Part shown: positions 13,845 to 41,358 of the stretch, one piece after another
Numbering within the stretch: position 1 is the stretch's first letter
Layout of the letters: every line of letters starts with the position of its first letter
Assembly (NCBI RefSeq): GCF_000474945.1
Contig: NZ_AXDW01000022.1
Span: 1-64,000 of the forward strand
Direction: 5' to 3'
Origin: Solimonas soli DSM 21787
GTDB taxonomy: Bacteria; Pseudomonadota; Gammaproteobacteria; Nevskiales; Nevskiaceae
DNA length: 64,000 nt
Notes under the pieces: model-generated
The model's database searches: none
Told to the model about the DNA's origin: nothing
What the model saw: only the letters and a program-made list of their open reading frames with translations
Program-made: the position numbers and the translations under genes

Positions 13845-15278
13845 ATGGGACAGAAGATTTCACTCGACTGGACGGCCCGGCCGGCGCAGACCGCCGCGCC
13901 GCCGTCCGGCAACTGGCGCGCGGCGCTGACCACGCTGCAGCCGCTGCTGGAAACACTGCTCCTCGTCGGCGCCGCCTGGCTGGCGCTGCTCCTGCTGCGG
14001 CCGCTGGTGGGCGCCATGGCGCCGAGCGACCACGAGGCGCTGATGGCGTCGATCACCACGCTGTTCGCGCCCTTCGTGCTGCGCCAGCGCTCCGAGGCGC
14101 GCGTCGCGCCGCGGCGCCGCGTGCTGCGCGATCTGGCCGGGCCGTATCTGCTGTTTGCCGCGATCGCCACGCTGGCGCTGGGGCTGGGCTGGCAGAGCGA
14201 GACGCCGCGTCTCTGGCTGCTGCTGTGGCTGACGCTCGGCTTCGCCGGCATCGGCGCCTTGCGCAGCGCCATGTGCCGCGCGCCGGTCGTCGAGCGCATC
14301 GCCGTGGTCGGCGCCGGCGAAGCCACCGACCGTCTCGTGCACTACCTGCAGCGCTCGGCGCCGGCCAGCGTCGAACTGGTCGGCGTGTTCGACGATCGCG
14401 CCACGCGTCCGCCGTCATCGACCATGGCGCGCAGCGGCTCGGTCGCCGATCTGCTCGCGCTCGGCCGCCAGCGCCGCGTCGACCTGGTGCTGATCGCCCT
14501 GCCCGATCACGCCGAAACGCGCATCCTCGAACTGCTCGGACAGCTGAAGTCGCTGAGCGTGTCGGTGGCGCTGAGTCCCTGCGGCATCGAACTCGCGATG
14601 CCGAAGCTGCCGGTCGAATACGTGGCCGGCCGCATGCCGCTGACGCTGATCGCCGAGCGGCCGATCCGCCGTGCCGGCGCGATCGCCAAGGCCGCCGAGG
14701 ACTATCTGCTCGGCGGCCTGCTGGTGCTGCTGCTGTCGCCGCTGCTGGCCCTGATCGCGCTCGCCGTGCGCCTCGACAGTCCCGGCCCGATCCTCTTCCG
14801 CCAGCCGCGCCATGCCTGGAACAACGCCGAGTTCGACGTCTTCAAGTTCCGCACCATGCGCTGGAATCCGCAGGGCGCGCCGCAGCCGCTGCGGCAGACC
14901 GAGCGCGGCGATCCGCGCGTGACGCGCGTCGGCCGCTTCCTGCGCCGCACCAGCCTCGACGAGCTGCCGCAGCTGTTCAACGTGCTGCGCGGCGAGATGT
15001 CGCTGGTCGGGCCGCGTCCGCACGCCGTCGACATGCGCACCGAGGAACGCCTCGGCAGCGAGATCGTCGAAACCTACGCCCACCGCCACCGCGTCAAGCC
15101 CGGCCTGACCGGCCTCGCCCAGGTGCGCGGCTATCGCGGCGCCACGCATACCGCCGAGCAGCTGCGGCGGCGCATCGAAGCCGACCTTGAGTACGTCGAG
15201 CACTGGTCGCTGTGGCTGGATCTGCAGATACTGGCGCGCACGGCGTGGATCGTGATCCGGGGACACAATGCCTATTGA
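13845..15278 (+). CDS. Polyprenyl-phosphate hexose-1-phosphate transferase (initiating EPS glycosyltransferase)
   Basis: 477 residues. N-terminal membrane helices (about 25-120) precede a Rossmann-like CoA-binding/epimerase-like domain (about 135-260: VVGAGEATDRLVHYL, VELVGVFDDR). A further helix (about 285-305) leads to the bacterial sugar-transferase catalytic domain with FKFRTMRW, the DELPQLFN dyad region and MSLVGPRPH. Such enzymes load the first sugar phosphate onto undecaprenyl phosphate for exopolysaccharide assembly (WbaP/GumD/EpsB type). The ATG at 13845 has a GAGG site. It overlaps the next gene by 11 nt and opens the exopolysaccharide region. Confidence 0.92.
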   Translation: MGQKISLDWTARPAQTAAPPSGNWRAALTTLQPLLETLLLVGAAWLALLLLRPLVGAMAPSDHEALMASITTLFAPFVLRQRSEARVAPRRRVLRDLAGPYLLFAAIATLALGLGWQSETPRLWLLLWLTLGFAGIGALRSAMCRAPVVERIAVVGAGEATDRLVHYLQRSAPASVELVGVFDDRATRPPSSTMARSGSVADLLALGRQRRVDLVLIALPDHAETRILELLGQLKSLSVSVALSPCGIELAMPKLPVEYVAGRMPLTLIAERPIRRAGAIAKAAEDYLLGGLLVLLLSPLLALIALAVRLDSPGPILFRQPRHAWNNAEFDVFKFRTMRWNPQGAPQPLRQTERGDPRVTRVGRFLRRTSLDELPQLFNVLRGEMSLVGPRPHAVDMRTEERLGSEIVETYAHRHRVKPGLTGLAQVRGYRGATHTAEQLRRRIEADLEYVEHWSLWLDLQILARTAWIVIRGHNAY

Positions 15279-16452
15279 GTCCTGGCGTCGCGCCGGCCGC
15301 GCCGGCCTGCTGCTCTGCGCGGCGACGCTGCCGCAAGCCGCGCGCGCCGGCTTCGACTTCACGCCATACGTGGCGGCGAGCGGCTATTACGACTCCAACG
15401 TGTTCTGCGTGTCCGGCCCGGCACAGGCGCTGGCGCGCGGCGGCGACGACCGCTTGAGCGACCGCGTGCTGCGCGCTGTGCTCGGCAGCGGCCTCGACTA
15501 CCGCTACGGCCGGCAGGAACTGAAGGCCACGCTCGAAGGCCGCGCCCTGCGCTACGACCATTTCGGCGAGCTCGATCACCAGGAGCATCGCGCTGCACTG
15601 GATTACCGCCTGCCGTTCGGCGATGTCGTCGAGCTGCACGCGACGGCAGCCGACGAGCGCCGCCAGGCCTCGCTCGCCGATCGTCAGGCCAACCTGCTGG
15701 CCATCGAGCACGAGCGCAGCGGCGACGTCAGCCTGCAGCTCGCGCCCGGCGACGACTGGCGTTTCGATGCCGACGCGCACGCGCGGCGCCTGCAATCGCC
15801 GCTGGCCGAGGCGCCCGACTTCGCGCTCACCGAGCAGGGCCTGCGCGCGACGCTGCGCCGTGTCGGCGAAGGGCCGCTGTCGCTGGGACTCGGCAGCGAA
15901 CTTCTGCAGGGCCGCTTCAGCGGCATCGGCGACGCGCAGCGCTTCACGCAGTACGGCGGCGGCGTCGACCTGCGCTACGAGATCAGCGGACTGACACGCC
16001 TGCAGGCGACGCTCGGCGCGAGCCGCCGCAACGAGAAGAGCGCGGCGCGCGACGACGTCTCGGCGCTGACCGGTTCGCTCGGCGTCGAACACGCCCTGAG
16101 CGGCGTGACCAGCGTCCGCCTCGACGCCTTTCGCAGCATCGACAGCGATGCCGGCGTGGGTCGCTCGCGCATCGCCAACGGCGCCGGCGCCGCGTTGATC
16201 TGGCGGCATGCGATCGTCGGCGCCGAACTGAGCGCGCAATGGACGCGCAGCGACTTCGCCGACGAACCGCGGCGCCGCGACGACAGCTTCGAAGCCAGCC
16301 TGCGCGTCCCCTACCAGATGCGGCGCTGGCTCGCGGTCACACCGTTCGCGCGCCGTTTCGTGCGCGATTCGAGCGACGCCGAAGCGCGTTACCACGTGAC
16401 GACGGCCGGCCTCGAACTGCGTGCGCAGTTCGGCGGCGAAGCCTCACGCTGA
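15268..16452 (+). CDS. Outer-membrane beta-barrel protein of the EPS locus (EpsL-like)
   Basis: 394 residues. A signal peptide (about 1-27, ending ARA) is followed by alternating amphipathic strands rich in aromatic and Arg residues, characteristic of a large beta-barrel. The early YVAASGYYDSNVF segment and the overall size resemble outer-membrane polysaccharide proteins of EpsL type found in beta- and gammaproteobacterial EPS clusters. The assignment rests on these features and on position: its start overlaps the stop of the initiating transferase. It may secrete or modify polymer. Its stop overlaps the convergent epimerase gene by 9 nt. Confidence 0.65.
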   Translation: MPIESWRRAGRAGLLLCAATLPQAARAGFDFTPYVAASGYYDSNVFCVSGPAQALARGGDDRLSDRVLRAVLGSGLDYRYGRQELKATLEGRALRYDHFGELDHQEHRAALDYRLPFGDVVELHATAADERRQASLADRQANLLAIEHERSGDVSLQLAPGDDWRFDADAHARRLQSPLAEAPDFALTEQGLRATLRRVGEGPLSLGLGSELLQGRFSGIGDAQRFTQYGGGVDLRYEISGLTRLQATLGASRRNEKSAARDDVSALTGSLGVEHALSGVTSVRLDAFRSIDSDAGVGRSRIANGAGAALIWRHAIVGAELSAQWTRSDFADEPRRRDDSFEASLRVPYQMRRWLAVTPFARRFVRDSSDAEARYHVTTAGLELRAQFGGEASR

Positions 16453-17412
16453 CAGCAGGCCCGGCTTGTCGACGCCGCCGCGCAGGGCGGCGGCGCAGGC
16501 AGCGAGGCCCTGATCGAGCGGCACCCAGCGTTGCCGCAGCTCGCGCTCCGCGGCCTGGCTGTCGAGCACGATGTCCTGCCGGAACAGCGCCAGCAGCGAC
16601 GGCGTGATCGTCGTCGCCGCCGCGCGCCCGGCGCCGGCGCGCCGCAGCACCTTCAGCAGCGGCGCGCGCAGATAGGCCTCGGCGGCGAGGCGGCGCGGCG
16701 TGATGCGGCGCACCGGCGTGGCGTCGAGCAGGCAGGCGAAGCGCACCAGATATTCGTTCCAGCTTGGCGCCTGCGGCGCGGCGAGATTGAAGGCCACGCC
16801 GCGCGGCGCGCGGCGCAGCACGTGCAGCACGGCGGCGGCGACGTCGTCGACGTGCACGAGATTGCAGCGCCCGTCGCCGGCGGCGCCGAGATCGCCGAGC
16901 CGCCCCTCGCGCAGCAGGCGGGCGATGCGCAGCGTCCATTGCTCGCTGTCCGGACCGTACACGCAGCCGGCGCGCAGCATCACGCTGCGCTCGCAGCGCG
17001 CCAGTTCGCGCTCCGCCTCGCGCTTGGCGGCGCCGTAGGCGCTGAGCCTGCCGGGCGCGGCGCCTTCATCGACGCGGCCCTCGCGATCGCCGTACACCGC
17101 CATCGAACTGAGCTGCACGACGAGCGGCTGCGGCGTGTGCGCGCGCACCGCATCGGCGAGCAGCGCGGCCTGCCGCTGCAGCATGCGCGGCGCGCCGGCG
17201 ACGCAATTGACGACCGCGTCGACGCCGTCGAGCGCGGCGCGCAAGGCGGCGCGGTCGAGCGCGTCGACGCGGCACAGCTGCACGCCGGCCGGCGCGGCGC
17301 GGGCGCGGCGCGTGCCGAGCAGGGGCTGTTCGAAGCCGCCGGCGCACAAGGCGCGCAGCACATGGCCGCCGATGTAGCCGGCGCCGCCGAGAACCAGCAC
17401 GCGCGAAGTCAC
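16444..17412 (-). CDS. NAD-dependent epimerase/dehydratase (extended SDR)
   Basis: 322 residues. The N-terminal NAD-binding loop VLVLGGAGYIGGHV (about 5-18) and the active-site Y126-x3-K130 (SAYGAAK) identify an extended SDR acting on nucleotide sugars or similar substrates. The LSSMAVYGD strand is typical. The start is GTG 17412, overlapping the stop of the GMC gene (GTGA), so the two form an operon. It probably supplies or modifies a sugar for the polysaccharide; the substrate cannot be assigned. Confidence 0.85.
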   Translation of the reverse strand: MTSRVLVLGGAGYIGGHVLRALCAGGFEQPLLGTRRARAAPAGVQLCRVDALDRAALRAALDGVDAVVNCVAGAPRMLQRQAALLADAVRAHTPQPLVVQLSSMAVYGDREGRVDEGAAPGRLSAYGAAKREAERELARCERSVMLRAGCVYGPDSEQWTLRIARLLREGRLGDLGAAGDGRCNLVHVDDVAAAVLHVLRRAPRGVAFNLAAPQAPSWNEYLVRFACLLDATPVRRITPRRLAAEAYLRAPLLKVLRRAGAGRAAATTITPSLLALFRQDIVLDSQAAERELRQRWVPLDQGLAACAAALRGGVDKPGLLSA

Positions 17413-19109
17413 GCCGCCAGCTCTTCGATCGACAGCGCCGCCGGCGACGCCGCCTGCGCGGGCGCCAGGCGACGCTGCAAATGATCGCCAAGCCGCAGGG
17501 CCAGCGCGACGATGGTCAGCGTCGGATTGGCCTGGCTCGAGGTCGGGAACACGGCGGCGCTGGCGACGAACAGATTGCCGACGCCATGCACGCGCAGGTC
17601 GGTATCGACCACGCCGGTGCGCGGCGTCGCCGCCATGCGCGCGGTGCCGATGTGATGGCCGCCGTAGGCGCCGTAGCGCAGCATCTCCTGCTCGATGCTT
17701 TCGGCGGCGTAGTCGAAGCGGCCGACGCCGCTGTCGCGCACGTCGGCGGCGAACGCCGCCAGCGCGCGCTGCACGGTGTCGACGTCGGCCTGCGTGTGGC
17801 GCCAGTCGATGCGCAGGCGCGGCATGCCGAGCTCGTCGCGTTGCTCGCTCAGCTGCACGCGGCTGCTCGGGTTCGGCACCTGCTCGGCGTGGAAGTCGAG
17901 GCTGAAGCAGGGCTCGCGCGGCGTGACGATGATCGACGGGAACTTGCGCGACGCCAGCTTGCGCTGCGTGAGCATCTGCCAGGCGAAGGCGAAGGCGGCG
18001 CACGGATCGCGGGCCACGTTGCGCGCGTGCGCGAGCCAGTCGCGCGGCGCGCTGTCGCCGTCGTGCAGGCGCTTGGCGTACTCGTACGGAATCAGCCGCC
18101 TGGCGAGGAACAGCAGCGACAGCACCGCCGAGCCGTGCGCCGGATCGCCGATGCGCGGATGGTGCAGACGCGCGATGAAGTTGCCGCAGCGCAGCGTGCG
18201 CTGCGCATCCTCGCGCAGGGCGAAGCGTCGCCGGCAATAGACGCCGTCGGCGCTGCGCTGGTAGCCGTGCGCGACGGCGACGCCGTGCCCGAGGCGCAGG
18301 TTGCCGATCGTGCCGGCGAGGTGGCACATGTAGTAGCGCCCGACCAGATCGTGACCGTTGCCGATGCCGGCCGGCTGCCGGTCATGGCTCGCCAGCAGCA
18401 GGCGCGCGGTTTCCAGGCCGCCGGCGGCGAGCACGACGAAGTCGGCCTGCACCTCGATGCGACGGCCGTCGAGCGTGCGCGCCAGCACGGCGGCGATGCG
18501 GTTGCCGTCGCCGTCGAGCCGCAGCGCGGTGACGTTGGCGTGCAGCACCACGCGCGTGCGGGCCGCGCCGTCGAGGCGCAGGCGATAGCGCTGCCCGAAA
18601 TCGGTCGGGCAGCTGAAGCGCTCCAGCGTGTCGTCGGAGAAGCGCGCCGCCGCGAAGCCGGCGACCGGCGGCGCGCTGCCGTCGGGGAAGGCGTCGGCGG
18701 CGCGATAGCGCGCCGGGCCGGCCTCGCAGAGCAGCGAGGCCTCGTCGTAGTAGCGCGCGAGTTCCTCGTAGCTGATCGGCCAGCCGCTGTGCGGTATGTA
18801 GTCGCGCGCCTCGAAATCGATGGGATCGAAGGGCACGCAGCGGCCGCCCCAGGTCGCGGTCGAGCCGCCGAGGCGGCGCTCGCGATAGCGATCGGCCGGC
18901 GGATGCAGGCGCGCGTCCGTGACCTCGCCCTCGTAGAGGCGCTGCGTGCGTGCCTCGTGCCGGCGGCCGCCGGCCTCCAGCAGCACGACATCGATGCCGC
19001 GCTGGCCGAGGCGCAGCGCCAGGGCGATACCGGCGGCGCCGCCGCCGACGATGCAGACCTGTGCCTGCAGCCGCGCGTCGTCGGCAAACCCGCGCGCGTC
19101 GATGAACAT
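17409..19109 (-). CDS. GMC-family FAD-dependent oxidoreductase in the EPS locus
   Basis: 566 residues. The FAD-binding motif VCIVGGGAAGIALALRLG lies near residue 17, followed by RRLGGSTATWGGRC. The C-terminal GMC domain contains GGHHIGTARMA and VFPTSSQANPT. Members oxidise alcohols or sugars. Placement beside a sugar epimerase and divergent from the WecG-like gene suggests it acts on a sugar or lipid-linked sugar of the exopolysaccharide, which is inference. It differs from the choline-dehydrogenase-like GMC protein at 46648-48252. The ATG at 19109 is preceded by a GGGGG stretch. Confidence 0.88.
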   Translation of the reverse strand: MFIDARGFADDARLQAQVCIVGGGAAGIALALRLGQRGIDVVLLEAGGRRHEARTQRLYEGEVTDARLHPPADRYRERRLGGSTATWGGRCVPFDPIDFEARDYIPHSGWPISYEELARYYDEASLLCEAGPARYRAADAFPDGSAPPVAGFAAARFSDDTLERFSCPTDFGQRYRLRLDGAARTRVVLHANVTALRLDGDGNRIAAVLARTLDGRRIEVQADFVVLAAGGLETARLLLASHDRQPAGIGNGHDLVGRYYMCHLAGTIGNLRLGHGVAVAHGYQRSADGVYCRRRFALREDAQRTLRCGNFIARLHHPRIGDPAHGSAVLSLLFLARRLIPYEYAKRLHDGDSAPRDWLAHARNVARDPCAAFAFAWQMLTQRKLASRKFPSIIVTPREPCFSLDFHAEQVPNPSSRVQLSEQRDELGMPRLRIDWRHTQADVDTVQRALAAFAADVRDSGVGRFDYAAESIEQEMLRYGAYGGHHIGTARMAATPRTGVVDTDLRVHGVGNLFVASAAVFPTSSQANPTLTIVALALRLGDHLQRRLAPAQAASPAALSIEELAA

Positions 19110-19304
19110 GATGGCCCCCGGACGAATGATCCGGCCCGCACTATCGGTCGCCGCCGGCGGCGGGGTCTGTACGACGCCGAACACATGCGCGGCGGCGCGG
19201 CGGCCGGCCGCGTTGCGTTCGCTGCCGAACAGAACCGCAGCGCCGACGTCCCTAGCATGCTTGCAAATGATGCCGCACGAGCGGCGGTTGCGAGGAGCGA
19301 CGAC

Positions 19305-20828
19305 ATGGGCGCATCCGACACTTTTCAGTTCTCGCCGCCGGCGCTGGCGGCGACGGCGCCGTGGCACTGGCGCGACGCGCTGCTGCGCCTGCAGCCGCTG
19401 TTCGATCTGCTCGTGCTGCTCGCCGCCGCGCGCGCCGCCACCCTCGCCGCCGCCGCGCTGCATCCCTCGCTGATCTTCCTCGCCGCCGGCTGGCCGGCCT
19501 GGGAACGCTGGTCGCTGCCGGCCGCGCTGTTCGGCGCCGTCCTCATGTCGCGCCGCGCGCAGACGGCGACGCTGCGCCAGGATCTGACGCGCATCGCGCT
19601 GTTCATCGCCCTGGCCGCGCTCGCCGGGCTGAGCTACGCCGAACGGCCCGAGGGCTGGCTGCCGATCTGGCTGGCGCTGTCCGGCGCCGGCCTCGTCATC
19701 ACGCGCCTGTCGCTGCGTCGCCTGCGCCGGCGCCGCACGGTGGCGGTCTACGGTGCCGGTCCGCAGGCCGACCGCCTGATCCGCCAGCTGCGCCGCTTCG
19801 AGGCCGATCGCGTCGACATCGTCGGCGTGTTCGACGATCGCGGCCGGCGCACGCCGGACGCCGAGTTCGCGCCGCGCGGCGACCTCGCCGATTTCGCGCG
19901 CCTCGCGCGCGGCGGGCCGGTCGACGCCGTGCTGCTCGCCCTGCCCGGCGCCGCGCACGAGCGCATCGAGCAGCTGCTCGGCACACTGCAGGGCCTGTCC
20001 GAGACCGTCGCCCTGTGTCCGGAGGACGACAGTGCCGGCGCCCGCGAGCTGCGTCTCGGCAGCTCGCTGAAGGCGCGCGTGCTGGCCGACGCGCATCACA
20101 CGGCCTGCAAGCTCGACGACTACGACCTCAAGGACTTTCTCGAGATCGCCGCCGGCTTCGGCGAGCAGCGCTACACCTACGTCGTCACGCCGAACGTCGA
20201 TCATCTGATCCGCCTGCACGACCAGACCAGCTTCCGGCGCCTGTATGCCAATGCCGGCTACATCCTGCTCGACAGCCGCTTCCTTGCCCACCTGCTGCAG
20301 CTGACGCGCGGCGTGCGCCTGCCGGTCTGCGCCGGCAGCGACCTGACGCGGCGGCTGTTCGAGGACGTGATCCGCGCCGACGACAACATCGTGCTGGTCG
20401 GCGCATCGGCCGAGCAGGCCGAACAGCTGCGCCGCCGCTACGGCCTGCGCGGCCTCGTCCACCACAACCCGCCGATGGGCTTCATCAACGACGCCGCCGC
20501 CGTCGAGACGTGCCTGCAGTTCATCGAAGCGCACAGCCCGTTCCGCTTCTGCCTGCTGGCCATCGGCTCGCCGCAGCAGGAAGTGATCGCCAACGCCTTG
20601 CGCGAGCGCGACAAGGCGCGCGGCATGACGCTGTGCATCGGCGCGTCGATCGACTTCCTCACCGGTCGCGAGCGCCGCGCGCCGGCCTGGATGCAGCGCG
20701 CCGGACTCGAATGGCTGCATCGCCTCGGCCAGTCGCCGCGACGCATGGCGAGCCGCTACCTGGTGCGCGGACCGCGCGTGTTCAATCTGCTGAGCCGCAC
20801 CGACGTGCAGCTGCGCCTGCATGACTGA
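19305..20828 (+). CDS. WecG/TagA-type glycosyltransferase fused to a phosphoglycosyltransferase-like N-terminal half
   Basis: 507 residues. The first half (about 20-260) repeats the architecture of the 13845-15278 protein: membrane helices, then a Rossmann-like unit with VAVYGAGPQADRLIRQL and VDIVGVFDDRGR. The catalytic hexose-phosphate transferase is missing. Instead residues about 285-507 are a GT26 (WecG/TagA/CpsF) domain with VTPNVDHLIRL, ILLDSRF, IVLVGASAEQAEQL, NPPMGF and IGSPQQEVIA. GT26 enzymes add the second sugar (often ManNAc or related) to a lipid-linked first sugar. The ATG at 19305 has a GAGGAG site. Confidence 0.88.
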   Translation: MGASDTFQFSPPALAATAPWHWRDALLRLQPLFDLLVLLAAARAATLAAAALHPSLIFLAAGWPAWERWSLPAALFGAVLMSRRAQTATLRQDLTRIALFIALAALAGLSYAERPEGWLPIWLALSGAGLVITRLSLRRLRRRRTVAVYGAGPQADRLIRQLRRFEADRVDIVGVFDDRGRRTPDAEFAPRGDLADFARLARGGPVDAVLLALPGAAHERIEQLLGTLQGLSETVALCPEDDSAGARELRLGSSLKARVLADAHHTACKLDDYDLKDFLEIAAGFGEQRYTYVVTPNVDHLIRLHDQTSFRRLYANAGYILLDSRFLAHLLQLTRGVRLPVCAGSDLTRRLFEDVIRADDNIVLVGASAEQAEQLRRRYGLRGLVHHNPPMGFINDAAAVETCLQFIEAHSPFRFCLLAIGSPQQEVIANALRERDKARGMTLCIGASIDFLTGRERRAPAWMQRAGLEWLHRLGQSPRRMASRYLVRGPRVFNLLSRTDVQLRLHD

Positions 20829-20854
20829 ATGCGCGCAGACGCGCAAAAGACGAA

Positions 20855-23706: not shown

Positions 23707-23822
23707 TGAGGACCTCTTGCTGAATAGATGAATCAAAAAGTTCTTCGCACCGCACGGAGCGCCGAAAACCACGCGACCAAGGTCGTCAAAGCGGAAGCGT
23801 CTGTGCGCTCACACACAACAGG

Positions 23823-24919: not shown

Positions 24920-24954
24920 CGCGTCGCGCGTGGCGCGCCGCGACCCGGCGCCGC

Positions 24955-29055: not shown

Positions 29056-29083
29056 GCCGTCTGTTCGAAATCGAACAGACGGC
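29056..29083. promoter_or_regulatory. 28-bp palindrome between the NRPS and wza operons
   Basis: Perfect 13-bp arms, GCCGTCTGTTCGA and TCGAACAGACGGC, around a central AA. It sits in the 140-nt gap between the divergent NRPS and polysaccharide-export start codons, about 52 and 62 nt from them. Its position suits an operator that co-regulates both units. The spacing does not fit an E. coli-type LexA box. Confidence 0.6.
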
Positions 29084-32166: not shown

Positions 32167-32175
32167 GCCCGCACG

Positions 32176-33573
32176 ATGCCGACGCTGGCCGGTCCTTCGC
32201 CGTCGCCGTATCGCTCGCCCGCCGCGGCGTCGCCGTGGGTGCGCGACGATCGCTGGAGCGCGCTGCTGGCGCTGCTCGTCTGGCTGTTGCTGCTGCTGAT
32301 GATCGTGCCGGACGGTTTCGACTATGCCGCGCTGAACGGCAGCGCGCCGGCCTCGGGCAGCGCCGCGAGCCGCCTCGCCTGGCTGCTGCTGCTCGGCGTC
32401 GCCGGCAGCCTGATCGCCTGGCGCTCGGCGCTCGCCTGGCTGGTGCTCAGGCAGCTCGATGTCTTCCTGCTGCCGTTCCTGGTGCTGGCGGCCGCCAGCG
32501 TCGCCTGGTCCATCGCGCCGGATTTCACGCTGCGCCGCCTGATCCGCGTGCTGACCTGCATCGCCGTCGCCCTCGCCTTCACGCTGGTCGGCTGGCAGCG
32601 ACGCCGCTTCGAGGACCTGCTGCGCCCGCTGCTGACCCTGCTGATGGCCGGATCGATCGTCTTCTCGCTGCTGCGTCCCGATCTCGCCGTGCATCACGAC
32701 ATGGAGGCCGGCGTCGACGGCGCCTGGCGCGGCCTGACCAACCACAAGAACACGCTCGGCATGCTCGCCGCCATCGGCCTGCTGCTGTGGACGCAGGCCC
32801 TGCTCGGCGGCCGCGCGCGGCGCGGCGCGGTCCTCGCCGGCGGCGCGCTCTGCCTGGTCTGCCTGGTCATGTCGCGCAGCTCGACGTCGCTGATGACGAC
32901 GCTGCTCAGCCTGCCGCTGCTGGCGCTGATGATGCGCGCGCCGGCCGCCTGGCGGCCGTACCTGCCGTGGATCGTCGCCGCCTGCGCCGTGCTGCTGGTG
33001 CTGTACGCGGTCGCCGTGCTGCGCCTGGTGCCGGGGCTCGACAGCCTGCTCAAGCCGGTCGCGGCGCTCACCGGCAAGGACCTCAGCTTCACCGGCCGCA
33101 GCCGCATCTGGGAACTGGTCGGCGACAACGTGCGCCTGCATCCCTTGCTCGGCAGCGGCTACGGCGCCTACTGGATCGGCCCGACGCCGATGTCGCCCTC
33201 CTACATCTTCGTGCCGACCATGTACTTCTATCCCGGCTCCGGACACAACGGCTATCTCGACGTCGTCAACGATCTCGGCGCGCTCGGTCTGGCCTGCCTG
33301 CTCGGCTACCTCGGCGCCTACGTCATGCAGGGCCTGCAGCTGCTGCGCAGCGATCGCGAGCAGGCGGCGCTGCTGCTGGCGCTGTTCATCCAGCAGGCGC
33401 TCGGCAACTTCTCGGAGTCGCACTGGTTCAATTCGCTGAGCGTCGGCTTCGGCATCATGGTGCTGGCCAGCTTGTCGCTGGCGCGCGCGCGGCTCGAGCT
33501 GCAGCTGCGTCGCCACTTCGGCGAGCCGCTGCTGCTGCCGGTGCGGCCGCCGGCGACGGGAGCCGCGCGATGA
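32176..33573 (+). CDS. Wzy/ExoQ-like polysaccharide polymerase (O-antigen ligase family)
   Basis: 465 residues with about ten to twelve membrane helices. The Wzy_C/O-antigen-ligase region is visible as FTGRSRIWELV followed by LLGSGYGAYW and GHNGYLDV, typical of ExoQ-type polymerases. It polymerises repeat units on the periplasmic side. It begins 10 nt after the kinase stop and overlaps the next gene by ATGA. Confidence 0.87.
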   Translation: MPTLAGPSPSPYRSPAAASPWVRDDRWSALLALLVWLLLLLMIVPDGFDYAALNGSAPASGSAASRLAWLLLLGVAGSLIAWRSALAWLVLRQLDVFLLPFLVLAAASVAWSIAPDFTLRRLIRVLTCIAVALAFTLVGWQRRRFEDLLRPLLTLLMAGSIVFSLLRPDLAVHHDMEAGVDGAWRGLTNHKNTLGMLAAIGLLLWTQALLGGRARRGAVLAGGALCLVCLVMSRSSTSLMTTLLSLPLLALMMRAPAAWRPYLPWIVAACAVLLVLYAVAVLRLVPGLDSLLKPVAALTGKDLSFTGRSRIWELVGDNVRLHPLLGSGYGAYWIGPTPMSPSYIFVPTMYFYPGSGHNGYLDVVNDLGALGLACLLGYLGAYVMQGLQLLRSDREQAALLLALFIQQALGNFSESHWFNSLSVGFGIMVLASLSLARARLELQLRRHFGEPLLLPVRPPATGAAR

Positions 33574-34688: not shown

Positions 34689-36130
34689 GCCGCCCGGCCC
34701 GCCTGCCCGACAGCGCGCGTTTCCCGCACGCCGACGATCATTCGCCGGCGGCCGCGCTGGCGGCGGTGCGCGAGCATCACGGCGCGCTGCTGATCGACCT
34801 CGACGAGACGCTCTACCTGCGCAACTCGACCGAGGACTTCCTCGACAGCGCGCGGCCCGGCCTGCTGGCGCTGCTGCTGCTGCGCCTGCTCGACGTGCTC
34901 AAGCCCTGGCGCTGGACCGGCGGCGAAAGCACGCGCGATGTCTGGCGCGTGCGCGTGATCCTGACCCTGCTGCCGTGGACCCTGCGGCGCTGGTGGCGCC
35001 GCGTGCCCGGCCTGGTCCGCGATCACCGCAATGTCGCCCTGCTCGAGGCGCTGGCGCCGGCCGGTCCGCGCGCCTGGGTCGTCACCGCCGGCTTCGCGCC
35101 GATCGTCGCGCCGCTGATCGAGGCGCTCGGCCTCGACCACGGCCGGGTGCTGGCCTGCTCGCTGTTCGAACTCGACGACCGTCGCCTCGGCAAGCTGCCG
35201 CGCGTGGTCGCCGCGCTCGGCGAGAAGTCGCTGCGCGACAGCCTGGTGCTGACCGATTCGCCCGACGATGACGCCCTGCTGGAAGCCTGCGCGCGTCCGC
35301 TGCACGTGGTCTGGCCGAACGCGCTCTATCGCCGCGCGCTGAGCCACGTCTACCTGCCCGGGCAATACCTGACGCTGGTCAAGCGGCCCGGCGAGCGCTA
35401 CATCCTGCGCGGCATCCTGCAGGAGGATTTCGCGTTCTGGCTGCTCGCCTCGCTGGCGCTGGCGGCGGCGCCGCTGACGCATGCGCTCGGCCTCGGCGCG
35501 CTGCTGCTGTCGTTCTGGACGATCTACGAACTCGGCTACGTCGACAACGACCGCATCGCCGCGCGCTACGAACGCGAGCCCAAGCTCAGCGCCGCCTTCC
35601 ACCAGGCGCCGGTCGCGACCCCGGTCGTGCAGCCCTGGCTATGGGCGGCGGCCGCCGGCTCCGCCGGTATCTGGCTGCTGCGCTGGCCGGCGCCGCCCGG
35701 CATGCGCGACGCCCTGGCCTGGGCGGCGATGCTGCTGGCGACGCATCTGTGGTTCCGCTTCTACAACCGTGTCGACAAGGCGACGCGCGTCTGGCTCTAC
35801 CCGGGCCTGCAGGCGGCGCGCAGTGTCGCCTTCGCGGTCATCGTGCCGGTCTGCCTCGGCGGCGCGATCGCGCTCGGCGCGCACGTGCTGGCGCGCTGGA
35901 TGCCCTACGTCGTCTACCGCAACGGCCGCTCGAGCTGGCCGGAAGTGCCTTTCCATCTCCTGCGCCTGGTGTTCTACGTCGTGCTGATGCTGATGCTGAC
36001 CCTGGTCGACGGCCCGGTCGTGCTCTGCAACCTCAGCGCCGCGGCGCTGCTCGTCTGGAACCTGTTCCGCGCGCGCGGCGAGCTGGGCGCCGTGCTCGGC
36101 GCCGCGCGGCGCATCGAGCACGCGCCATGA
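34685..36130 (+). CDS. HAD-hydrolase domain fused to a multi-helix membrane domain
   Basis: 481 residues. The N-terminal part (about 25-225) is a HAD fold, with nucleophile motif LLIDLDETLYLRNS, WVVTAGF as motif II and LTDSPDDDAL as the acidic motif. The C-terminal part (about 250-480) has about seven membrane helices with conserved-looking YVDNDRIAARYE and RFYNRVDKATR stretches. HAD plus UbiA-like membrane fusions make or cleave polyprenyl-phosphate sugars in other bacteria. A role in lipid-linked sugar or phosphate turnover is inference. I do not recognise the membrane half with certainty. Confidence 0.7.
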   Translation: MSRPARLPDSARFPHADDHSPAAALAAVREHHGALLIDLDETLYLRNSTEDFLDSARPGLLALLLLRLLDVLKPWRWTGGESTRDVWRVRVILTLLPWTLRRWWRRVPGLVRDHRNVALLEALAPAGPRAWVVTAGFAPIVAPLIEALGLDHGRVLACSLFELDDRRLGKLPRVVAALGEKSLRDSLVLTDSPDDDALLEACARPLHVVWPNALYRRALSHVYLPGQYLTLVKRPGERYILRGILQEDFAFWLLASLALAAAPLTHALGLGALLLSFWTIYELGYVDNDRIAARYEREPKLSAAFHQAPVATPVVQPWLWAAAAGSAGIWLLRWPAPPGMRDALAWAAMLLATHLWFRFYNRVDKATRVWLYPGLQAARSVAFAVIVPVCLGGAIALGAHVLARWMPYVVYRNGRSSWPEVPFHLLRLVFYVVLMLMLTLVDGPVVLCNLSAAALLVWNLFRARGELGAVLGAARRIEHAP

Positions 36131-37050
36131 GCGTCGAACAGCCGTCGGTCAGCGTCTGCATCGCCACCTATCGCCGGCCGGCGAAGCTCGCCCTGCTGCT
36201 CGACGATCTCGCCGCGCAGACGCGGCCGCCGGCGCAGGTCGTGGTCGTCGACAACGACGCCGGCCAGAGCGCGCGTCCGGCCATCGACCGCGCGCGCGGC
36301 CGCGGCCTGCCCTACGTGCTGCAGTACGCGACGCAGTCGGAGAAGAACATCTCGCTGGCGCGCAATCTCAGCGTGCGCCTGGCCCGCGGCGACTGGCTGG
36401 CGCTGATCGACGACGACGAGCGGGCCGGACCGCAGTGGCTGGCGCGCCTGGTCGATGCCGCCGCGCGCTATCGCGCCGACGGCGTGCTCGGCCCGGTCGA
36501 GCCGCAGCTGCCGGCGCACGCGCCGGGCTGGATCCTGCGCGGCCGCTTCTACGAGTGGGCGCGCTTCCGCAGTGGCACGCCGGTGCCGCCCAATCGCCTG
36601 CGGCTCGGCAATGCGCTGCTTTCCGCCACCGCGCTGCGCGGCCTGCACGGACCGTTCGATCCCGCCTACGGCCTGACCGGCGGCGAGGACGGCGATCTGC
36701 TGTCGCGCCTCGTGCGGGACGGCGCGCGCATCGTCTGGTGCGACGAGGCCACGGTGCAGGAGCCGGTCGACGACGCGCGCCTGTCGCTGCGCTGGCTGCT
36801 GCGCCGCGCCCTGCGCGGCGGCCAGGACTTCGCGCGCCACACGCTGGCCGGCCGCTACGGCCCGGCGACGCCGCGCCGCCGCCTTGCTTTCACCGTGCGC
36901 GCCGCCGCGCAGCTGCTCGCCGCCGGCGCGCTGACCATCGTCAGCGTGCCGTTCGGCCGGCACCGCGCGGCGCGCTGGCTGCTAGCCGCCTCCGCCAACT
37001 TCGGCAAGCTGACGCAGTTGCTGGGCCTGCACTACCGCGAGTACGCCTGA
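36127..37050 (+). CDS. GT2 family glycosyltransferase
   Basis: 307 residues. GT-A fold with SVCIATYRRPAKL at the start, VVVVDNDAG, the metal-binding LALIDDDERAG and a GGEDGDLLSRL acceptor-site motif. A C-terminal hydrophobic stretch may anchor it to the membrane. It would add a sugar to the lipid-linked repeat unit on the cytosolic face. ATGA overlap upstream and TGATG junction downstream. Confidence 0.9.
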   Translation: MSVEQPSVSVCIATYRRPAKLALLLDDLAAQTRPPAQVVVVDNDAGQSARPAIDRARGRGLPYVLQYATQSEKNISLARNLSVRLARGDWLALIDDDERAGPQWLARLVDAAARYRADGVLGPVEPQLPAHAPGWILRGRFYEWARFRSGTPVPPNRLRLGNALLSATALRGLHGPFDPAYGLTGGEDGDLLSRLVRDGARIVWCDEATVQEPVDDARLSLRWLLRRALRGGQDFARHTLAGRYGPATPRRRLAFTVRAAAQLLAAGALTIVSVPFGRHRAARWLLAASANFGKLTQLLGLHYREYA

Positions 37051-38231
37051 TGGACAGTGTGCTCGTCCTGCTGCTGCTCTTCGTCGGCGCGCCCGCCGTC
37101 GTCGCCTGCGCCTATCTCGCCGTCCTGAGCCTGCTGTCGGCGCCGTTGCCGGCGCCGCCGCCGTCGTCGCGCACGCTGCGCTTCGACGTCATCGTGCCGG
37201 CGCATGACGAGGCGCTGGTCATCGGCCGCACGCTCGCCAGCCTGGCGCGGCTCGACTGGCCGGCGACGCAGTTCCGCCGCGTCGTGGTCGCCGACAACTG
37301 CCGCGATGCGACGGCGGCGCTGGCGCGTGCCGCCGGTGCCGTCGTGCTCGAGCGCCGCGACGCCGAGCGGCGCGGCAAGGGCCGCGCCCTGGCCTTCGCC
37401 TTCGCGCACAGCGCCGCCGATGGCTGGGCCGACGCGGTGGTGGTCGTCGATGCCGATTCCGAGGTGTCGCCGAACCTGCTCGAAGCCTTCGCCACGCGCA
37501 TCGAGCGCGGCGCCGAGGCGCTGCAGGCGCACTACGGCGTGCTCAATCCGCTGGCCTCGTGGCGCACGCGGCTGATCGAGATCGCGCACGGCTCGTTCCA
37601 CGTGCTGCGCTCGCGGGCGCGCGAACGTCTGGCGCTGTCCTGCGGGCTGCGTGGCAACGGCTGGTGCGTGACGCACGCGCTGCTGCGCGCGGTGCCGTTC
37701 GACGCCTTCTCGCTGACCGAGGATCTCGAATACGGGCTGACGCTCGGCCTCGCCGGCCACCGCGTGCACTACGCGCACGAGGCGCGCGCCGACGCCGAGA
37801 TGACGTCGAGCGCCGCGGTCGCGCTGCGCCAGCGCCAGCGCTGGGAACAGGGCCGCTTCGCCCTGCAGCGGCGCTTCACGCCGCAGCTGTTGCGCGCGCT
37901 GCGGCGCCGGCCGTCGCGCCTCGGCTTCGATCTGCTCTGCGAGCTCTGGGTGCCGCCGCTGTCCTATCTGTGCCTGCACGTGCTCGCCTTCAGCGCGCTG
38001 GCGATCACGGCCTGGCGCTACGACGCGGCGCTGTGGCCAGCGCCGCTCGCCGCCCTGCTGTCCTGCCTGGTGCTGCTGCTCTACGTGCTGCGCGGCTGGG
38101 CGCTCAGCGACATCGGCTGGCGCGGCGTCTTCGATCTGGCGCGCGCGCCGCTGTTCCTGCTCTGGAAGCTGCGCGTGCTGCTGTCGCGCAGCCTGCGCGA
38201 ATGGGTGCCGACTTCGCGGCACCATCCATGA
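37050..38231 (+). CDS. Membrane GT2 glycosyltransferase (cellulose-synthase-like)
   Basis: 393 residues. An N-terminal membrane helix is followed by a GT-A domain with VIVPAHDEALVI, VVADNCRD, VVVDADSEV (metal-binding DAD), SLTEDLEYG and the processive-type QRQRWEQGR (QxxRW). Two or three membrane helices form the C-terminal third. Processive GT2 enzymes have these motifs, but similar proteins also add single sugars. The ATG shares its A with the preceding stop. Confidence 0.9.
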   Translation: MDSVLVLLLLFVGAPAVVACAYLAVLSLLSAPLPAPPPSSRTLRFDVIVPAHDEALVIGRTLASLARLDWPATQFRRVVVADNCRDATAALARAAGAVVLERRDAERRGKGRALAFAFAHSAADGWADAVVVVDADSEVSPNLLEAFATRIERGAEALQAHYGVLNPLASWRTRLIEIAHGSFHVLRSRARERLALSCGLRGNGWCVTHALLRAVPFDAFSLTEDLEYGLTLGLAGHRVHYAHEARADAEMTSSAAVALRQRQRWEQGRFALQRRFTPQLLRALRRRPSRLGFDLLCELWVPPLSYLCLHVLAFSALAITAWRYDAALWPAPLAALLSCLVLLLYVLRGWALSDIGWRGVFDLARAPLFLLWKLRVLLSRSLREWVPTSRHHP

Positions 38232-39532
38232 GCGCGCGCCTGAACGCACGCCGTGCCTTCTATCGCCTGGCGCAGCTGCTCGGCGGCGCCGTCGTCGGCC
38301 AGGCGCTGCTGTCGGCCGCCAACCTCGCCGCCGGCGTGCTGCTGCTGCGCTACGCGCATGCCGAGCAGTACGGCGGCTACGTCCTGGTCGGCTCGGCGGT
38401 CGCTCTGCTCGGCGCGCTGCAGGCGGCCTTCGTCGGACCGCCGCTGGTGCAGCGCCTCGCCGAACTGCCGGCGGCGGCCAGGCGGGCGCTGGCCGCCGGC
38501 GCCTGGCGCGAGCAGCGCCGGCTGATCCTGCAGGTCCTGCTGATCGGCGCGCCGCTGCTCGCGCTCGCCGCCCTGGCCACGCGTGCGTCGCCGGGACTGG
38601 CGGCGCTCAGCGCCGCCGCGCTGCTGGCGTCGGCGGCCGCCCTGTATCGCAATTTCCACCGCCTGCTGCTGCAGTTCCATCGCCGCGCCTGGCCGATCCT
38701 GTGCGGCGACATGCTGTATGCCGCCGTGCTCGTGCTCGGCATCCTGCTGTCGTGCCGCCTGCCCGGCGCCGCCTTGATGGCGACCCTCGCCCTCGGCGCG
38801 GCCGCCCTGCTGTCGGGAAGTTACGGCGCGCGCGCCCTGCGCCGCGACGCCGCCGGCGACGACGCGAGCCGCGGCGTGCTGCGCCAGCTGGCGCCGCTCG
38901 GCCTCTGGTCGGCCGGCGGCGCGGCGATCCACTGGACCTTCAACCAAGGCTACAACTACCTGGTCGCCGCGCTGGCCGACGTCGGCACCGTCGGCGCGAT
39001 CGCCGGCACGCGCCTGGCGCTGATGCCGGTCAATCTGCTCAGCACCGGCATCGGCTCGACGCTGCTGCCGCTGACCGTCGACTCGCTGCAGCGCGACGGC
39101 GCGCGGCGCACGCTGCGCCGGCTCGCGCTGATGGCGGGGCTCATCGCCCTGCTCGCGCTGCTCTACGCCGGCGCGCTGTGGCTGCTGCGCGACTGGCTGT
39201 TCGACGTGGTGCTGCGCAAGTCCTTCGCGCAACGCGACACGCTGCTGCTGCTGTGGATGCTCGCGGTCGTCGCCGCCGCCGTGCGCGAGCCGCTGATCTA
39301 TCTGGTCGTCGCGCGGCAGCGCCTGCGCGCGCTGACGCTGGCGACCGGCGGCGCGGCGATCGCCGCCGTCGGCACCGTGCTGCTCGCCACACCGCGCTAC
39401 GGCGCGCCGGGCGCGGTCGGCGGCGTGCTGCTCGGCGAGCTGTGCAGCCTGGCCGCCGTGCTGTTCCTGTGCTGGCGCGAATGCCGGCCGGCGCGCGTCG
39501 CGCCGCTGCCGGGCATGGAGATGACGACGTGA
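38228..39532 (+). CDS. Wzx-like oligosaccharide flippase
   Basis: 434 residues with about 12 membrane helices in the MOP (Wzx/MATE-like) arrangement. It is hydrophobic throughout with short charged loops, and its order next to GTs and a Wzy-like polymerase supports the call. It would move the undecaprenyl-linked repeat to the periplasm. ATGA overlap with the GT2 gene; its stop overlaps the GTG start of the A-T gene. Confidence 0.82.
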   Translation: MSARLNARRAFYRLAQLLGGAVVGQALLSAANLAAGVLLLRYAHAEQYGGYVLVGSAVALLGALQAAFVGPPLVQRLAELPAAARRALAAGAWREQRRLILQVLLIGAPLLALAALATRASPGLAALSAAALLASAAALYRNFHRLLLQFHRRAWPILCGDMLYAAVLVLGILLSCRLPGAALMATLALGAAALLSGSYGARALRRDAAGDDASRGVLRQLAPLGLWSAGGAAIHWTFNQGYNYLVAALADVGTVGAIAGTRLALMPVNLLSTGIGSTLLPLTVDSLQRDGARRTLRRLALMAGLIALLALLYAGALWLLRDWLFDVVLRKSFAQRDTLLLLWMLAVVAAAVREPLIYLVVARQRLRALTLATGGAAIAAVGTVLLATPRYGAPGAVGGVLLGELCSLAAVLFLCWRECRPARVAPLPGMEMTT

Positions 39533-41358
39533 ACGAACGACCCGAAGCCCTGCGTCAGAACGTCGTCGCGGTGTTCCTCGATCGTGTGCGCGAGCAGCCA
39601 CGGCGCATCGCCCTGCGCGGCGCGCAGGGCCTCGACTACGCCGGACTGGAAGCGCGCTCGGCGGCGATCGCCGCCGCCCTGCAGCGCCACGGCGTCGGCC
39701 GCGGCGCGATCGTCGGCCTGTGCGCGCGACGTTCGGTCGACACCATCGCCGCGCTGCTCGCCATCCTGCGCTGCGGCGCCGCCTATCTGCCGTTCGACCG
39801 CAGCTACCCGGCGCCGCTGCTGCGGCGCATCTACGAGGAGGCGCGGCCGGCGGCGATGCTGCTCGACGACGCCGATCGCGAGGCGCCGTTCTGGGACGGC
39901 GACGCGCTGTCGCTCGCGGCGCTGGCGGCCGGCAAGGAACGTCCCCGCGAGGTCGACATCGGCGTCGACGATCCGGCCTACGTGATGTACACCTCGGGCT
40001 CGACCGGCGCGCCGAAAGGCGTGGTGGTTCCGCACCGCGGCATCGTGCGCCTGGTGCGCGAAACCGACTATGCCGACTTCGGCGCCGATCAGGTCTTCTT
40101 GCAATGGGCGCCGCTCGCCTTCGACGCCTCCACCTTCGAGATCTGGGGCGCGCTGCTCAACGGCGCGACGCTGGCGATCGCCGATCCGGACGCCGCCTCG
40201 CTCGACGCGCTCGCCGACACCATTCGCGCGCATGGCGTGACCACGCTGTGGCTGACCGCCGGCCTGTTCCACCTGATGGTCGAACGCCGCCTCGACGGCC
40301 TGGCGCCGCTGCGCCAGCTGCTCGCCGGCGGCGACGTGCTGTCGCCGACGCATGTGCGCCGCGTGCTCGCCGCGCTGCCGCGGTGCGCACTGATCAACGG
40401 CTACGGGCCGACCGAGAACACCACCTTCACCTGCTGCCAGCGCATCACCGCGGTCGAGGACGGCGGTTCGATCCCGATCGGCCGGCCGATCGCGCACACC
40501 GAGGTACTGATCCTCGACGAAGCCGGCCAGCCGGTCGCCGACGGCGACAGCGGCGAGCTCTACGCCGGTGGCCTCGGCGTCGCGCTCGGCTATCTGCACC
40601 AGCCGGCGCTGAGCGCCGCGCGCTTCGTCGCCGATCCGCGCGGTGGCGGACGCCTGCTGTATCGCAGCGGCGATCGCGTGCGCCGGCGCGGCGACGGCGC
40701 GATCGAGTTCATCGGCCGCATCGACCGCCAGGTGAAGATCAACGGCAAGCGCGTCGAGCTCGACGCCGTCGAGGACGCGCTGCAGCGCTGCGGCGTCAGC
40801 GCGGCGGCGGTGATCGCCCGCGATCTCGGCGGCGCCCAGCGCCGCCTCGAAGCCTTCGTCTGCGGCAGCGACGCCGAGCCGCAGGCCCTGCGCGCGGCGC
40901 TCGCCGCGCAGCTGCCGGCGTTCATGCTGCCGGCGACGATCACATCGCTGCCGGCGCTGCCGCTGACGCCGACCGGCAAGATCGATCGTCGCCGCCTCGC
41001 CGAACAGACCGCCGCCGCCGGCGCGATGCCGGCAGCCGTCGGCGACGGCGTGGAAGCGGCGCTGGCGCGGCTCTGGTGCCAGGCCCTCGGCCGCGACCGC
41101 GTCGGCCTCGACGACAACTTCTTCGATCTCGGCGGCAGCTCGCTGCAGCTGCTCGATCTGCACGCGGCGATGCGCGCCACGCTCAAGCCCGACGCGGCGC
41201 TCGTCGATCTGTTCCGCCACACGAAGATCCGCCAGCAGGCGGCGTGGATTCGCGGCGACGCGGCGCGCGAGGCGCGCGGCGCGGTGTCCGGACGCGAGGC
41301 GCAGCGCCGCGCCGCGATCGCCGCCGCGCGCCTGCGCCACGGCCCGACGAGGCCCTAA
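39529..41358 (+). CDS. Stand-alone NRPS adenylation-thiolation (A-T) didomain protein
   Basis: 609 residues. The adenylation domain (about 10-500) has VMYTSGSTGAPKG, FDASTFEIWG, YGPTENTTF, LYRSGDRVR and LTPTGKIDRR. The T domain (about 515-585) has phosphopantetheine Ser538 in DLGGSSLQL. Read by eye, the specificity residues are D-A-F-W-L-G-G-T-F, a valine-type code I recall. No C or TE domain is present, so it would load an amino acid for another enzyme, either the C-A-T-TE NRPS or a glycan-modifying step. The GTG start at 39529 overlaps the flippase stop, making it the last gene of the polysaccharide export operon. Its stop overlaps the convergent Rieske gene. Confidence 0.9.
   Translation: MNERPEALRQNVVAVFLDRVREQPRRIALRGAQGLDYAGLEARSAAIAAALQRHGVGRGAIVGLCARRSVDTIAALLAILRCGAAYLPFDRSYPAPLLRRIYEEARPAAMLLDDADREAPFWDGDALSLAALAAGKERPREVDIGVDDPAYVMYTSGSTGAPKGVVVPHRGIVRLVRETDYADFGADQVFLQWAPLAFDASTFEIWGALLNGATLAIADPDAASLDALADTIRAHGVTTLWLTAGLFHLMVERRLDGLAPLRQLLAGGDVLSPTHVRRVLAALPRCALINGYGPTENTTFTCCQRITAVEDGGSIPIGRPIAHTEVLILDEAGQPVADGDSGELYAGGLGVALGYLHQPALSAARFVADPRGGGRLLYRSGDRVRRRGDGAIEFIGRIDRQVKINGKRVELDAVEDALQRCGVSAAAVIARDLGGAQRRLEAFVCGSDAEPQALRAALAAQLPAFMLPATITSLPALPLTPTGKIDRRRLAEQTAAAGAMPAAVGDGVEAALARLWCQALGRDRVGLDDNFFDLGGSSLQLLDLHAAMRATLKPDAALVDLFRHTKIRQQAAWIRGDAAREARGAVSGREAQRRAAIAAARLRHGPTRP

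What the first reader, a model, noticed from the sequence alone, without database searches (positions are those of the whole stretch)
13845..41358. Exopolysaccharide locus interleaved with nonribosomal peptide synthetase parts
A Wzx/Wzy-type pathway shares its export operon with an A-T didomain (last gene, translationally coupled), and a divergent C-A-T-TE NRPS plus its own Sfp-type activator sits beside it. The arrangement suggests amino acid or short peptide decoration of a polysaccharide or its lipid precursor, or co-secretion of a peptide with the polymer. I do not know a described system of this exact layout.
Basis: partly seen in the sequence, partly recalled or inferred. Interest (0 to 1): 0.85.

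Follow-up and report, generated by a model that had tools for sequence, protein, structure and literature searches.

The report
Peptide-making enzymes embedded in slime-sugar locus
A Solimonas bacterium carries what look like the first and last enzymes of a small peptide assembly line inside the genes for a secreted polysaccharide, an arrangement shared by some relatives, which suggests that the slime polymer is tagged with, or made together with, a short peptide.

Summary
A ten-gene wza-to-wzx operon (29145-41358) ends in an A-T gene overlapping wzx by 4 bp; a C-A-T-TE NRPS and a PPTase lie divergently beside it. The locus is in 3 of 11 genomes of the genus. The C-A-T-TE stands beside this exopolysaccharide (EPS) core in 10 of 16 countable loci, one in a complete genome of another family. 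In five of these genomes no other condensation domain was found. A palindrome between the two operons is exact in the three Solimonas loci. So A-T (Val-like code) and C-A-T-TE are best read as start and end of one hybrid line. Loci with a lone C-A-T-TE carry a cupin-like plus GNAT gene pair instead (5 of 5; 0 of 11 others). Attachment of the product to the EPS is inferred, not shown. No such system was among the papers listed.

The parts
13845..15278 (+). undecaprenyl-phosphate hexose-1-phosphate transferase (WcaJ/EpsB type): starts EPS repeat
   Evidence: PF02397/PF13727; TIGR03025 381 bits over cut-off 296
15268..16452 (+). EpsL-like outer-membrane beta-barrel
   Evidence: PF10082; TIGR03014 126 bits, below its cut-off of 275
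16444..17415 (-). NAD-dependent epimerase (approximate start)
   Evidence: PF01370
17409..19109 (-). GMC-type oxidoreductase
   Evidence: PF05199; conserved in S. variicoloris, S. flava, G025
19166..19185 (.). palindromic site between GMC and WecG genes (TGTnCGAnnnCGnACA, 0 mismatches)
19257..20828 (+). WecG/TagA/CpsF glycosyltransferase with CoA-binding_3 N-terminal part (start approximate)
   Evidence: PF03808, PF13727
20917..23772 (-). GH5-Calx-beta-TIG protein
   Evidence: PF00150, PF03160, PF01833; 81-84% identical in the other two Solimonas loci
24194..24958 (-). Sfp/Npt-type 4'-phosphopantetheinyl transferase, overlaps NRPS stop by 4 bp
   Evidence: PF17837, PF01648
24955..29004 (-). 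C-A-T-TE NRPS; C motif HHIVCDG, A code DILFMGVIYK, TE nucleophile Cys (GWCVAG)
29056..29083 (.). perfect 13-bp-arm palindrome between NRPS and EPS operons
   Evidence: 12-bp-arm version exact in S. variicoloris and S. flava
29145..30014 (+). EpsE/Wza-like polysaccharide export protein (lipobox LGAC read by eye)
   Evidence: PF02563, SLBB; TIGR03028 205 bits, below its cut-off of 263
30014..31438 (+). EpsF/Wzz chain-length protein
   Evidence: PF02706; TIGR03017 below cut-off
31435..32166 (+). EpsG-type tyrosine kinase
   Evidence: TIGR03029 below cut-off
32176..33573 (+). Wzy polymerase-like (Wzy_C)
   Evidence: PF04932
33570..34688 (+). acyltransferase-3 membrane protein
   Evidence: PF01757
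34685..36130 (+). HAD phosphatase fused to a membrane half that may be UbiA-like
   Evidence: PF12710; model pLDDT 88; Foldseek best HAD hit E 1e-3, UbiA/PRTase hits weak, E 0.24-0.54
36127..37050 (+). GT2 glycosyltransferase
   Evidence: PF00535
37050..38231 (+). EpsU-like GT2 glycosyltransferase
   Evidence: PF13641; NF041865 453 bits, below its cut-off of 700
38228..39532 (+). Wzx flippase
   Evidence: model pLDDT 84; WzxE 9g9p E 1.7e-8, TM 0.72
39529..41358 (+). A-T didomain (adenylation + carrier), code DAFWLGGTFK, read as initiation module
   Evidence: PF00501, PF00550; best PDB core hit PA1221; 4-bp overlap with wzx

Best explanation
The locus makes a Wzx/Wzy-type exopolysaccharide and holds the starter and terminal modules of a three-protein hybrid NRPS-PKS line. 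The A-T protein loads a Val-like amino acid. The KS-AT-T-aminotransferase-C-A-T protein (encoded elsewhere in this genome, beside the A-T gene in relatives) extends it with malonate, converts the keto group to an amine and adds a Gly-like residue. The C-A-T-TE adds a last small residue and releases the chain through a cysteine thioesterase. The adjacent PPTase arms the carriers. NRPS and EPS operons start from one divergent intergenic region that holds a conserved palindrome. The line itself is well supported by sequence. Chain order and substrates are inferred, and so is the last step: that the product is placed on the EPS (repeat unit or lipid-linked precursor) before Wzx/Wza export.
For: Missing parts fit: the C3 protein has KS-AT-T-AMT-C-A-T and no TE or starter. 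The genome has two C domains, in this protein and in the C-A-T-TE; of five PF00975 thioesterase matches the one in the C-A-T-TE is by far the strongest. KS, AMT and T motifs are intact. Orthologues: A-T and PKS-NRPS genes adjacent in S. variicoloris, S. flava and G025; A-T, PKS-NRPS and C-A-T-TE genes contiguous in G016 and G017. An A-T is fused to KS in one frame in G008 and in a G027 fragment (the G008 A domain is only 36% identical). The C3 block is 79% identical over 10 kb to the block right of A-T in S. variicoloris. EPS coupling: C-A-T-TE in 10 of 16 countable EPS cores; palindrome exact in the three Solimonas loci; related sites before the cupin-GNAT genes of G026, G139, L102 and L105.
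Against: No acceptor, attachment enzyme or product was seen. Type I TEs normally hydrolyse or cyclise (recalled). In G016 and G017 the line lies away from the EPS core, and there the terminal A domain lacks its core motifs and catalytic Lys and the second C-domain His is Gln. The window genome has the PKS-NRPS gene on another contig, and no palindrome within one mismatch was found in that stretch. The palindrome pattern also occurs, with one mismatch, in EPS loci without C-A-T-TE (L101, L104, L109, G017), and no sigma-70 promoter match was found in the shared gap. Only 3 of 11 genomes of the genus hold the locus.
Confidence: 0.5

Rival explanations
1. The line makes a free, secreted small peptide (signal, metal binder or surfactant) that is merely co-expressed with the EPS, as part of one biofilm programme.
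For: Complete-looking assembly line with TE. In G016 and G017 it is an operon away from the EPS core. A shared intergenic region and palindrome fit co-regulation without attachment.
Against: Lone C-A-T-TE enzymes, without any other condensation domain found, stay tied to the EPS core in five genomes. Weakly: of ten proteins scanned around the PKS-NRPS and related genes none matched a peptide-exporter family, but five had no Pfam hit and the rest of the genome was not searched for exporters.
Confidence: 0.32
2. The C-A-T-TE (working as A-T-TE) is a self-standing enzyme that puts a single glycine-like residue on the EPS in all these loci; the A-T/PKS-NRPS genes of Solimonas serve another product and share the neighbourhood only.
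For: In G005, G020, G026, G139 and G426 no other C domain was found. In G005, G026 and G020 the C motif is lost (HQ..DR, NA..DR, deleted) while the A, T and TE motifs checked stay. Code DILQLGLIW in G020 and G026 equals that read from the DhbF Gly module. These loci add a cupin-like + GNAT pair (5 of 5) that could modify and transfer the residue (inferred).
Against: In Solimonas and G025 the C motif HHIVCDG is intact, and the PKS-NRPS protein has no TE of its own, the next best PF00975 matches in the genome being far weaker. The Solimonas code DILFMGVIY differs from the Gly one.
Confidence: 0.13
3. Chance neighbourhood of an NRPS and an EPS cluster.
For: 6 of 16 EPS cores lack any C-A-T-TE.
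Against: Same layout in 10 loci from at least two families; the same single other genome of 369 carries both markers; shared palindromes.
Confidence: 0.05

Closest known systems
AlmEFG glycine modification of Vibrio cholerae lipid A
   Same: Adenylating enzyme and carrier put an amino acid on a surface glycan; AlmE is a Gly-activating A domain (PMC11253843 passage).
   Different: Separate small proteins and a lipid A acyltransferase (recalled); here multidomain NRPS and PKS parts in an EPS locus, acceptor unknown.
Dlt D-alanylation of teichoic acids
   Same: A domain + carrier feeding aminoacyl groups to a cell-surface polymer (recalled; DltA models match below their cut-offs).
   Different: No C, TE, KS or aminotransferase; acts outside through DltB/DltD (recalled).
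Microcystin/nodularin-type hybrids (McyG/McyE/McyC)
   Same: Recalled layout A-T-KS..., KS-AT-T-AMT-C-A-T, C-A-T-TE.
   Different: Far smaller here, and initiation and termination genes lie in an EPS locus.
AB3403 of Acinetobacter baumannii (PDB 4zxh/4zxi)
   Same: C-A-T-TE single module; best PDB hit of the G025 A core; Gly-activating (table in PMC11253843, where it is printed AB3404).
   Different: Not in a wza/wzx/wzy locus as far as recalled; its TE nucleophile was not compared here (one search gave no hit).
Vibrio polysaccharide (VPS)
   Same: An EPS with an amide-linked glycine (PMC11637428 passage), so amino-acid-bearing EPS exist.
   Different: No NRPS known to me in the vps loci (recalled).
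XrtA/XrtB (Eps) EPS loci
   Same: EpsE, EpsF, EpsG, EpsL are the best NCBIfam matches; an AMP ligase family of XrtA systems (TIGR03098) also matches both NRPS proteins below its cut-off.
   Different: All these scores are below the family cut-offs; no exosortase among the genes scanned.
ObiF (obafluorin)
   Same: C-A-T-TE with a cysteine TE nucleophile, GXCXG (PMC6668435 passages).
   Different: ObiF makes a beta-lactone and carries an MbtH domain (same passages).

Membership tests
Wzx/Wzy-dependent EPS pathway | initiating transferase, Wzx, Wzy, Wza-type exporter and Wzz/kinase in one locus | tested here: met
Hybrid NRPS-PKS assembly line | starter, elongation and release modules with intact catalytic motifs in one genome | tested here: met
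   A-T and C-A-T-TE in window, KS-AT-T-AMT-C-A-T on C3
Hybrid NRPS-PKS assembly line | transfer of the chain between the three proteins | not testable with these tools
   needs reconstitution; gene adjacency and A-T-KS fusions in relatives support it
AlmEFG-like aminoacyl modification | Gly-type adenylation plus carrier | tested here: inconclusive
   Gly-like codes in G020, G026 and, with changes, G025, G027, G005; Solimonas code DILFMGVIY differs
AlmEFG-like aminoacyl modification | dedicated transferase moving the residue to the glycan | tested here: inconclusive
   GNAT PF13480 beside lone C-A-T-TE in 5 of 5 loci; not found in the three Solimonas loci
AlmEFG-like aminoacyl modification | amino acid covalently on the polymer | not testable with these tools
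   no chemistry available
XrtA/XrtB exosortase EPS system | Eps proteins above the curated NCBIfam cut-offs | tested here: not met
   EpsE 204.8 of 262.65, EpsF 243 of 423, EpsG 156 of 314, EpsL 127 of 275
XrtA/XrtB exosortase EPS system | exosortase gene | not tested
   no exosortase model was searched in the whole genome

The most novel reading that the evidence does not exclude
A clade of EPS loci carries dedicated NRPS (and in Solimonas hybrid PKS) machinery whose aminoacyl or beta-amino-peptidyl product is joined to the exopolysaccharide. There would be two flavours: lone (C)-A-T-TE with a cupin-like oxygenase and a GNAT transferase, and a full A-T / KS-AT-T-AMT-C-A-T / C-A-T-TE line. This would be assembly-line peptide decoration of a secreted bacterial polysaccharide.
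Probability: 0.4. Interest if true: 0.85.

Novelty: new variant of a known kind. Interest (0 to 1): 0.62.

Why it matters
Amino-acid substituents on surface glycans can change charge, gelling and resistance, and the enzymes known to me add single residues. A conserved EPS locus with its own NRPS/PKS modules would give a genetic handle on peptide-bearing exopolysaccharides and a marker set (HAD-UbiA-like + C-A-T-TE with cysteine TE, cupin-like + GNAT) to find them. It also shows how genome mining could file such parts as orphan, broken NRPS fragments.

Tried and rejected
Rejected: 16531-17484 and the N-terminal half of 17481-20828 (+) as genes; they are the antisense of the epimerase and GMC genes. 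Rejected: A-T as a stand-alone decorating enzyme, because of the PKS-NRPS partner. Tried without result: literal search for the code DILQLGLIWK (0 papers); Solimonas + exopolysaccharide + NRPS (0 papers); sigma-70 and terminator scan of 28700-29400 (none); PDB sequence search with the TE domain (no hit at 1e-8); the palindrome near the C3 PKS gene (none within one mismatch). The HAD C-terminal half as UbiA-like rests on weak Foldseek hits only. The T-TE tree groups the 10 EPS-linked enzymes with G016 and G017 (97/97) but does not resolve their order. Not counted among the 16 loci: L103, L105, L108, L112, L114, L115 and L117 (contig ends before the NRPS side, or EPS core not seen); L099, L100, L104, L106, L110, L111, L113 and L116 were not counted again, being contigs of G046, G038, G008, G020, G026, G017, G027 and G005. 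Left out of the pair test: L105 (pair present, NRPS side not visible) and G027 C352 (contig ends). The pair test was set up after seeing the pattern.
Full report
What is there. A polyprenyl glycosylphosphotransferase (13845-15278) and an EpsL-like barrel open the region; a WecG-type glycosyltransferase, a GMC oxidoreductase, an epimerase and a GH5-Calx-beta-TIG protein lie between. A ten-gene operon 29145-41358 follows: EpsE/Wza, EpsF/Wzz, EpsG kinase, Wzy, acyltransferase-3, HAD-UbiA-like, GT2, EpsU-like GT2, Wzx and A-T. Of its nine joints six are 4-bp overlaps, two 1-bp overlaps and one a 9-bp gap (coordinates). Wzx had no Pfam match but its predicted structure matches WzxE. Divergently, 24955-29004 encodes C-A-T-TE and 24194-24958 a PPTase.

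Is the association real. Two markers were used: the HAD-UbiA-like protein for the EPS core and C-A-T-TE orthologues at 950 bits or more (a line drawn after seeing the scores). In 58 family genomes they occur in 11 and 10, the 10 all within the 11; within the genus, 3 of 11 genomes have the locus and 8 lack both markers. In 369 class genomes each occurs in the window's genome and one other, and that other, G139 (single contig, 99% complete, another family), is the same. There PPTase, C-A-T-TE and EPS core lie together, with one GDSL-type gene between C-A-T-TE and core. Counting EPS cores with the NRPS side visible, 10 of 16 have the C-A-T-TE: G000, G046, G038, G025, G027, G026, G020, G005 (Hydrocarboniphaga daqingensis), L102 and G139. 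Six do not: G008, L101, L107, L109, G016 and G017. EpsE itself was not detected by tblastn in L101, L102 and G139. All cores but G139's were found through HAD-UbiA or NRPS searches, so the set is not random. The EPS core evidently exists without NRPS genes, and the NRPS is a recurrent accessory.

The missing middle. One search gave one other condensation domain in the genome, on C3. The protein there (2615 aa) reads KS-AT-T-aminotransferase class III-C-A-T with no thioesterase and no starter. In S. variicoloris a 71%-identical protein is encoded immediately right of the A-T gene, convergent; S. flava has the same order; in G025 A-T and PKS-NRPS genes are adjacent on one strand; in G017 A-T, PKS-NRPS and C-A-T-TE genes follow each other, and match positions give the same order in G016. 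In G008 and in a G027 fragment an A-T is fused to the KS in one frame, although the G008 A domain is distant (36%). A 10-kb block with the PKS-NRPS gene on C3 is 79% identical to the S. variicoloris block, so in the window's genome it lies apart from the EPS locus, at an unknown distance. The six genomes with this set (G000, G038, G046, G016, G017, G025) have exactly two C domains each. The simplest reading is one line, split over two sites here.

Chemistry predicted. The A-T code reads DAFWLGGTFK (anchored by eye). Its nearest solved core is PA1221, which activates Val (passages). The AT domain has HAFH, which I recall as malonyl-type; KS Cys and His and the carrier serines are present. C-A-T-TE codes are DILQLGLIW in G020 and G026, identical to residues read from the DhbF Gly module (Gly); DILQMGMIW in G025 and G027; DIMQLGLIW in G005; DLPQLGMVW and DMPQLGMVW in L102 and G139; DILFMGVIY in the three Solimonas, whose substrate I leave open. 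The TE nucleophile is Cys in all 14 aligned proteins, including the non-EPS G016, G017, G138 and G367; of five outgroup TEs four have Ser and one gave no motif. A catalytic cysteine is called less common in PMC6668435 (passages).

Two flavours. In G005, G020, G026, G139 and the genome of L102 (G426) no other C domain was found (at E <= 1e-10; at 1e-5; G026 is a 570-contig draft and the completeness of G426 is not told). In three of the five the C motif is lost; in L102 and G139 the histidines and Asp remain but the Gly is Ala or Ser. G027, which has a second C domain and an A-T-KS fragment elsewhere, has HRMVCDG. The A, T and TE motifs checked stay intact in the EPS-linked enzymes. All five lone loci carry a cupin-like gene and a PF13480 GNAT gene near the EPS core: by Pfam in G005, G026 and G139, by Pfam (GNAT) and tblastn (cupin) in G020, by tblastn in L102; the PF13621 scores are below Pfam's cut-off. 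None of 11 other loci (four with A-T, seven without C-A-T-TE) carries the pair (Fisher 2e-4, post hoc and not corrected for relatedness). Weak cupin hits without GNAT occur in the G016 and G017 EPS loci. This suggests that a lone (C)-A-T-TE with its own tailoring and transfer enzymes, and the full hybrid line, are alternative accessories of the same polymer.

Control. A 28-bp perfect palindrome lies at 29056-29083, between the NRPS and EPS start codons; a 26-bp version is perfect in both other Solimonas loci. The pattern TGTnCGAnnnCGnACA, allowing one mismatch, occurs four times in the window (two exact). It lies between GMC and WecG genes in the three Solimonas loci, in the gap between C-A-T-TE and the EPS core of G027, L102 and G139, and before the cupin-like genes of G026, L102, G139 and L105; shuffled window sequence gives about 0.1 per 64 kb (simple base shuffles only). 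Against a tight link: it was not found in the gap of G025, G005, G020 or G026, nor near the PKS-NRPS gene on C3, and one-mismatch matches also occur in loci without C-A-T-TE (L101, L104, L109, G017). A Crp-type regulator gene neighbours the PKS-NRPS gene in G000 and G046; whether it binds the palindrome is unknown.

Most likely working. Shown by sequence: the EPS pathway, the line's parts, their conserved neighbourhood and the shared intergenic region. Inferred: chain order, substrates, and above all that the product is joined to the EPS precursor in the cytoplasm before Wzx. I give the full statement 0.5, a free co-regulated peptide 0.32, a glycine-only tag by C-A-T-TE 0.13, chance 0.05.

Literature. 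Searches (25 of 39 papers listed; none; 15 of 94; 4 of 4; 2 of 2; 8 of 4,150) showed no title or abstract on an EPS locus with such NRPS parts; I read only passages of PMC3102044 among them. Many subscription papers are not held. VPS of Vibrio cholerae carries amide-linked glycine (PMC11637428 passages), so amino-acid-bearing EPS are known, but made by means not compared here.

Noticed in passing
window 8866-11760 (-): One 964-aa frame matches a beta-CASP/RMMBL RNase in its N half and thymidine-phosphorylase-type domains in its C half: an unusual fusion of RNA and nucleoside enzymes.
   Followed up: no
window 41355-58182: Dense catabolic block right of A-T: Rieske oxygenases, AMP ligase, enoyl-CoA hydratases, thiolase, GMC oxidoreductase, aldehyde and acyl-CoA dehydrogenases. 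Distant homologues of the Rieske and AMP-ligase genes (30% and 38%) flank the PKS-NRPS gene on C3.
   Followed up: partly
window 20917-23772 (-): GH5-Calx-beta-TIG protein with odd codon-position GC (0.53, 0.56, 0.93), 81-84% identical in the two other Solimonas loci, with GH5 parts in G020, G026 and G139 EPS loci: perhaps an EPS-trimming enzyme.
   Followed up: partly
window 34685-36130 (+): HAD phosphatase fused to a membrane half, used here as EPS marker. Weak fold resemblance to a membrane-bound PRTase (8j8j, E 0.26) hints at a pentofuranose-lipid donor.
   Followed up: partly
L055 (G017) and L056 (G016): Terminal C-A-T-TE of these lines has lost A-domain core motifs and the catalytic Lys, yet keeps T and Cys-TE.
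   Followed up: partly
L102:13523-14815: The wzx-like stretch of the groundwater MAG L102 has an in-frame stop; left as is.
   Followed up: no
L140 (G138) and L144 (G367): Distant C-A-T-TE with GWCFGG thioesterase and Gly-like code beside AMP-ligase-like genes, no EPS-core homologue found in the fetched stretch; the only C domain found in each genome.
   Followed up: no
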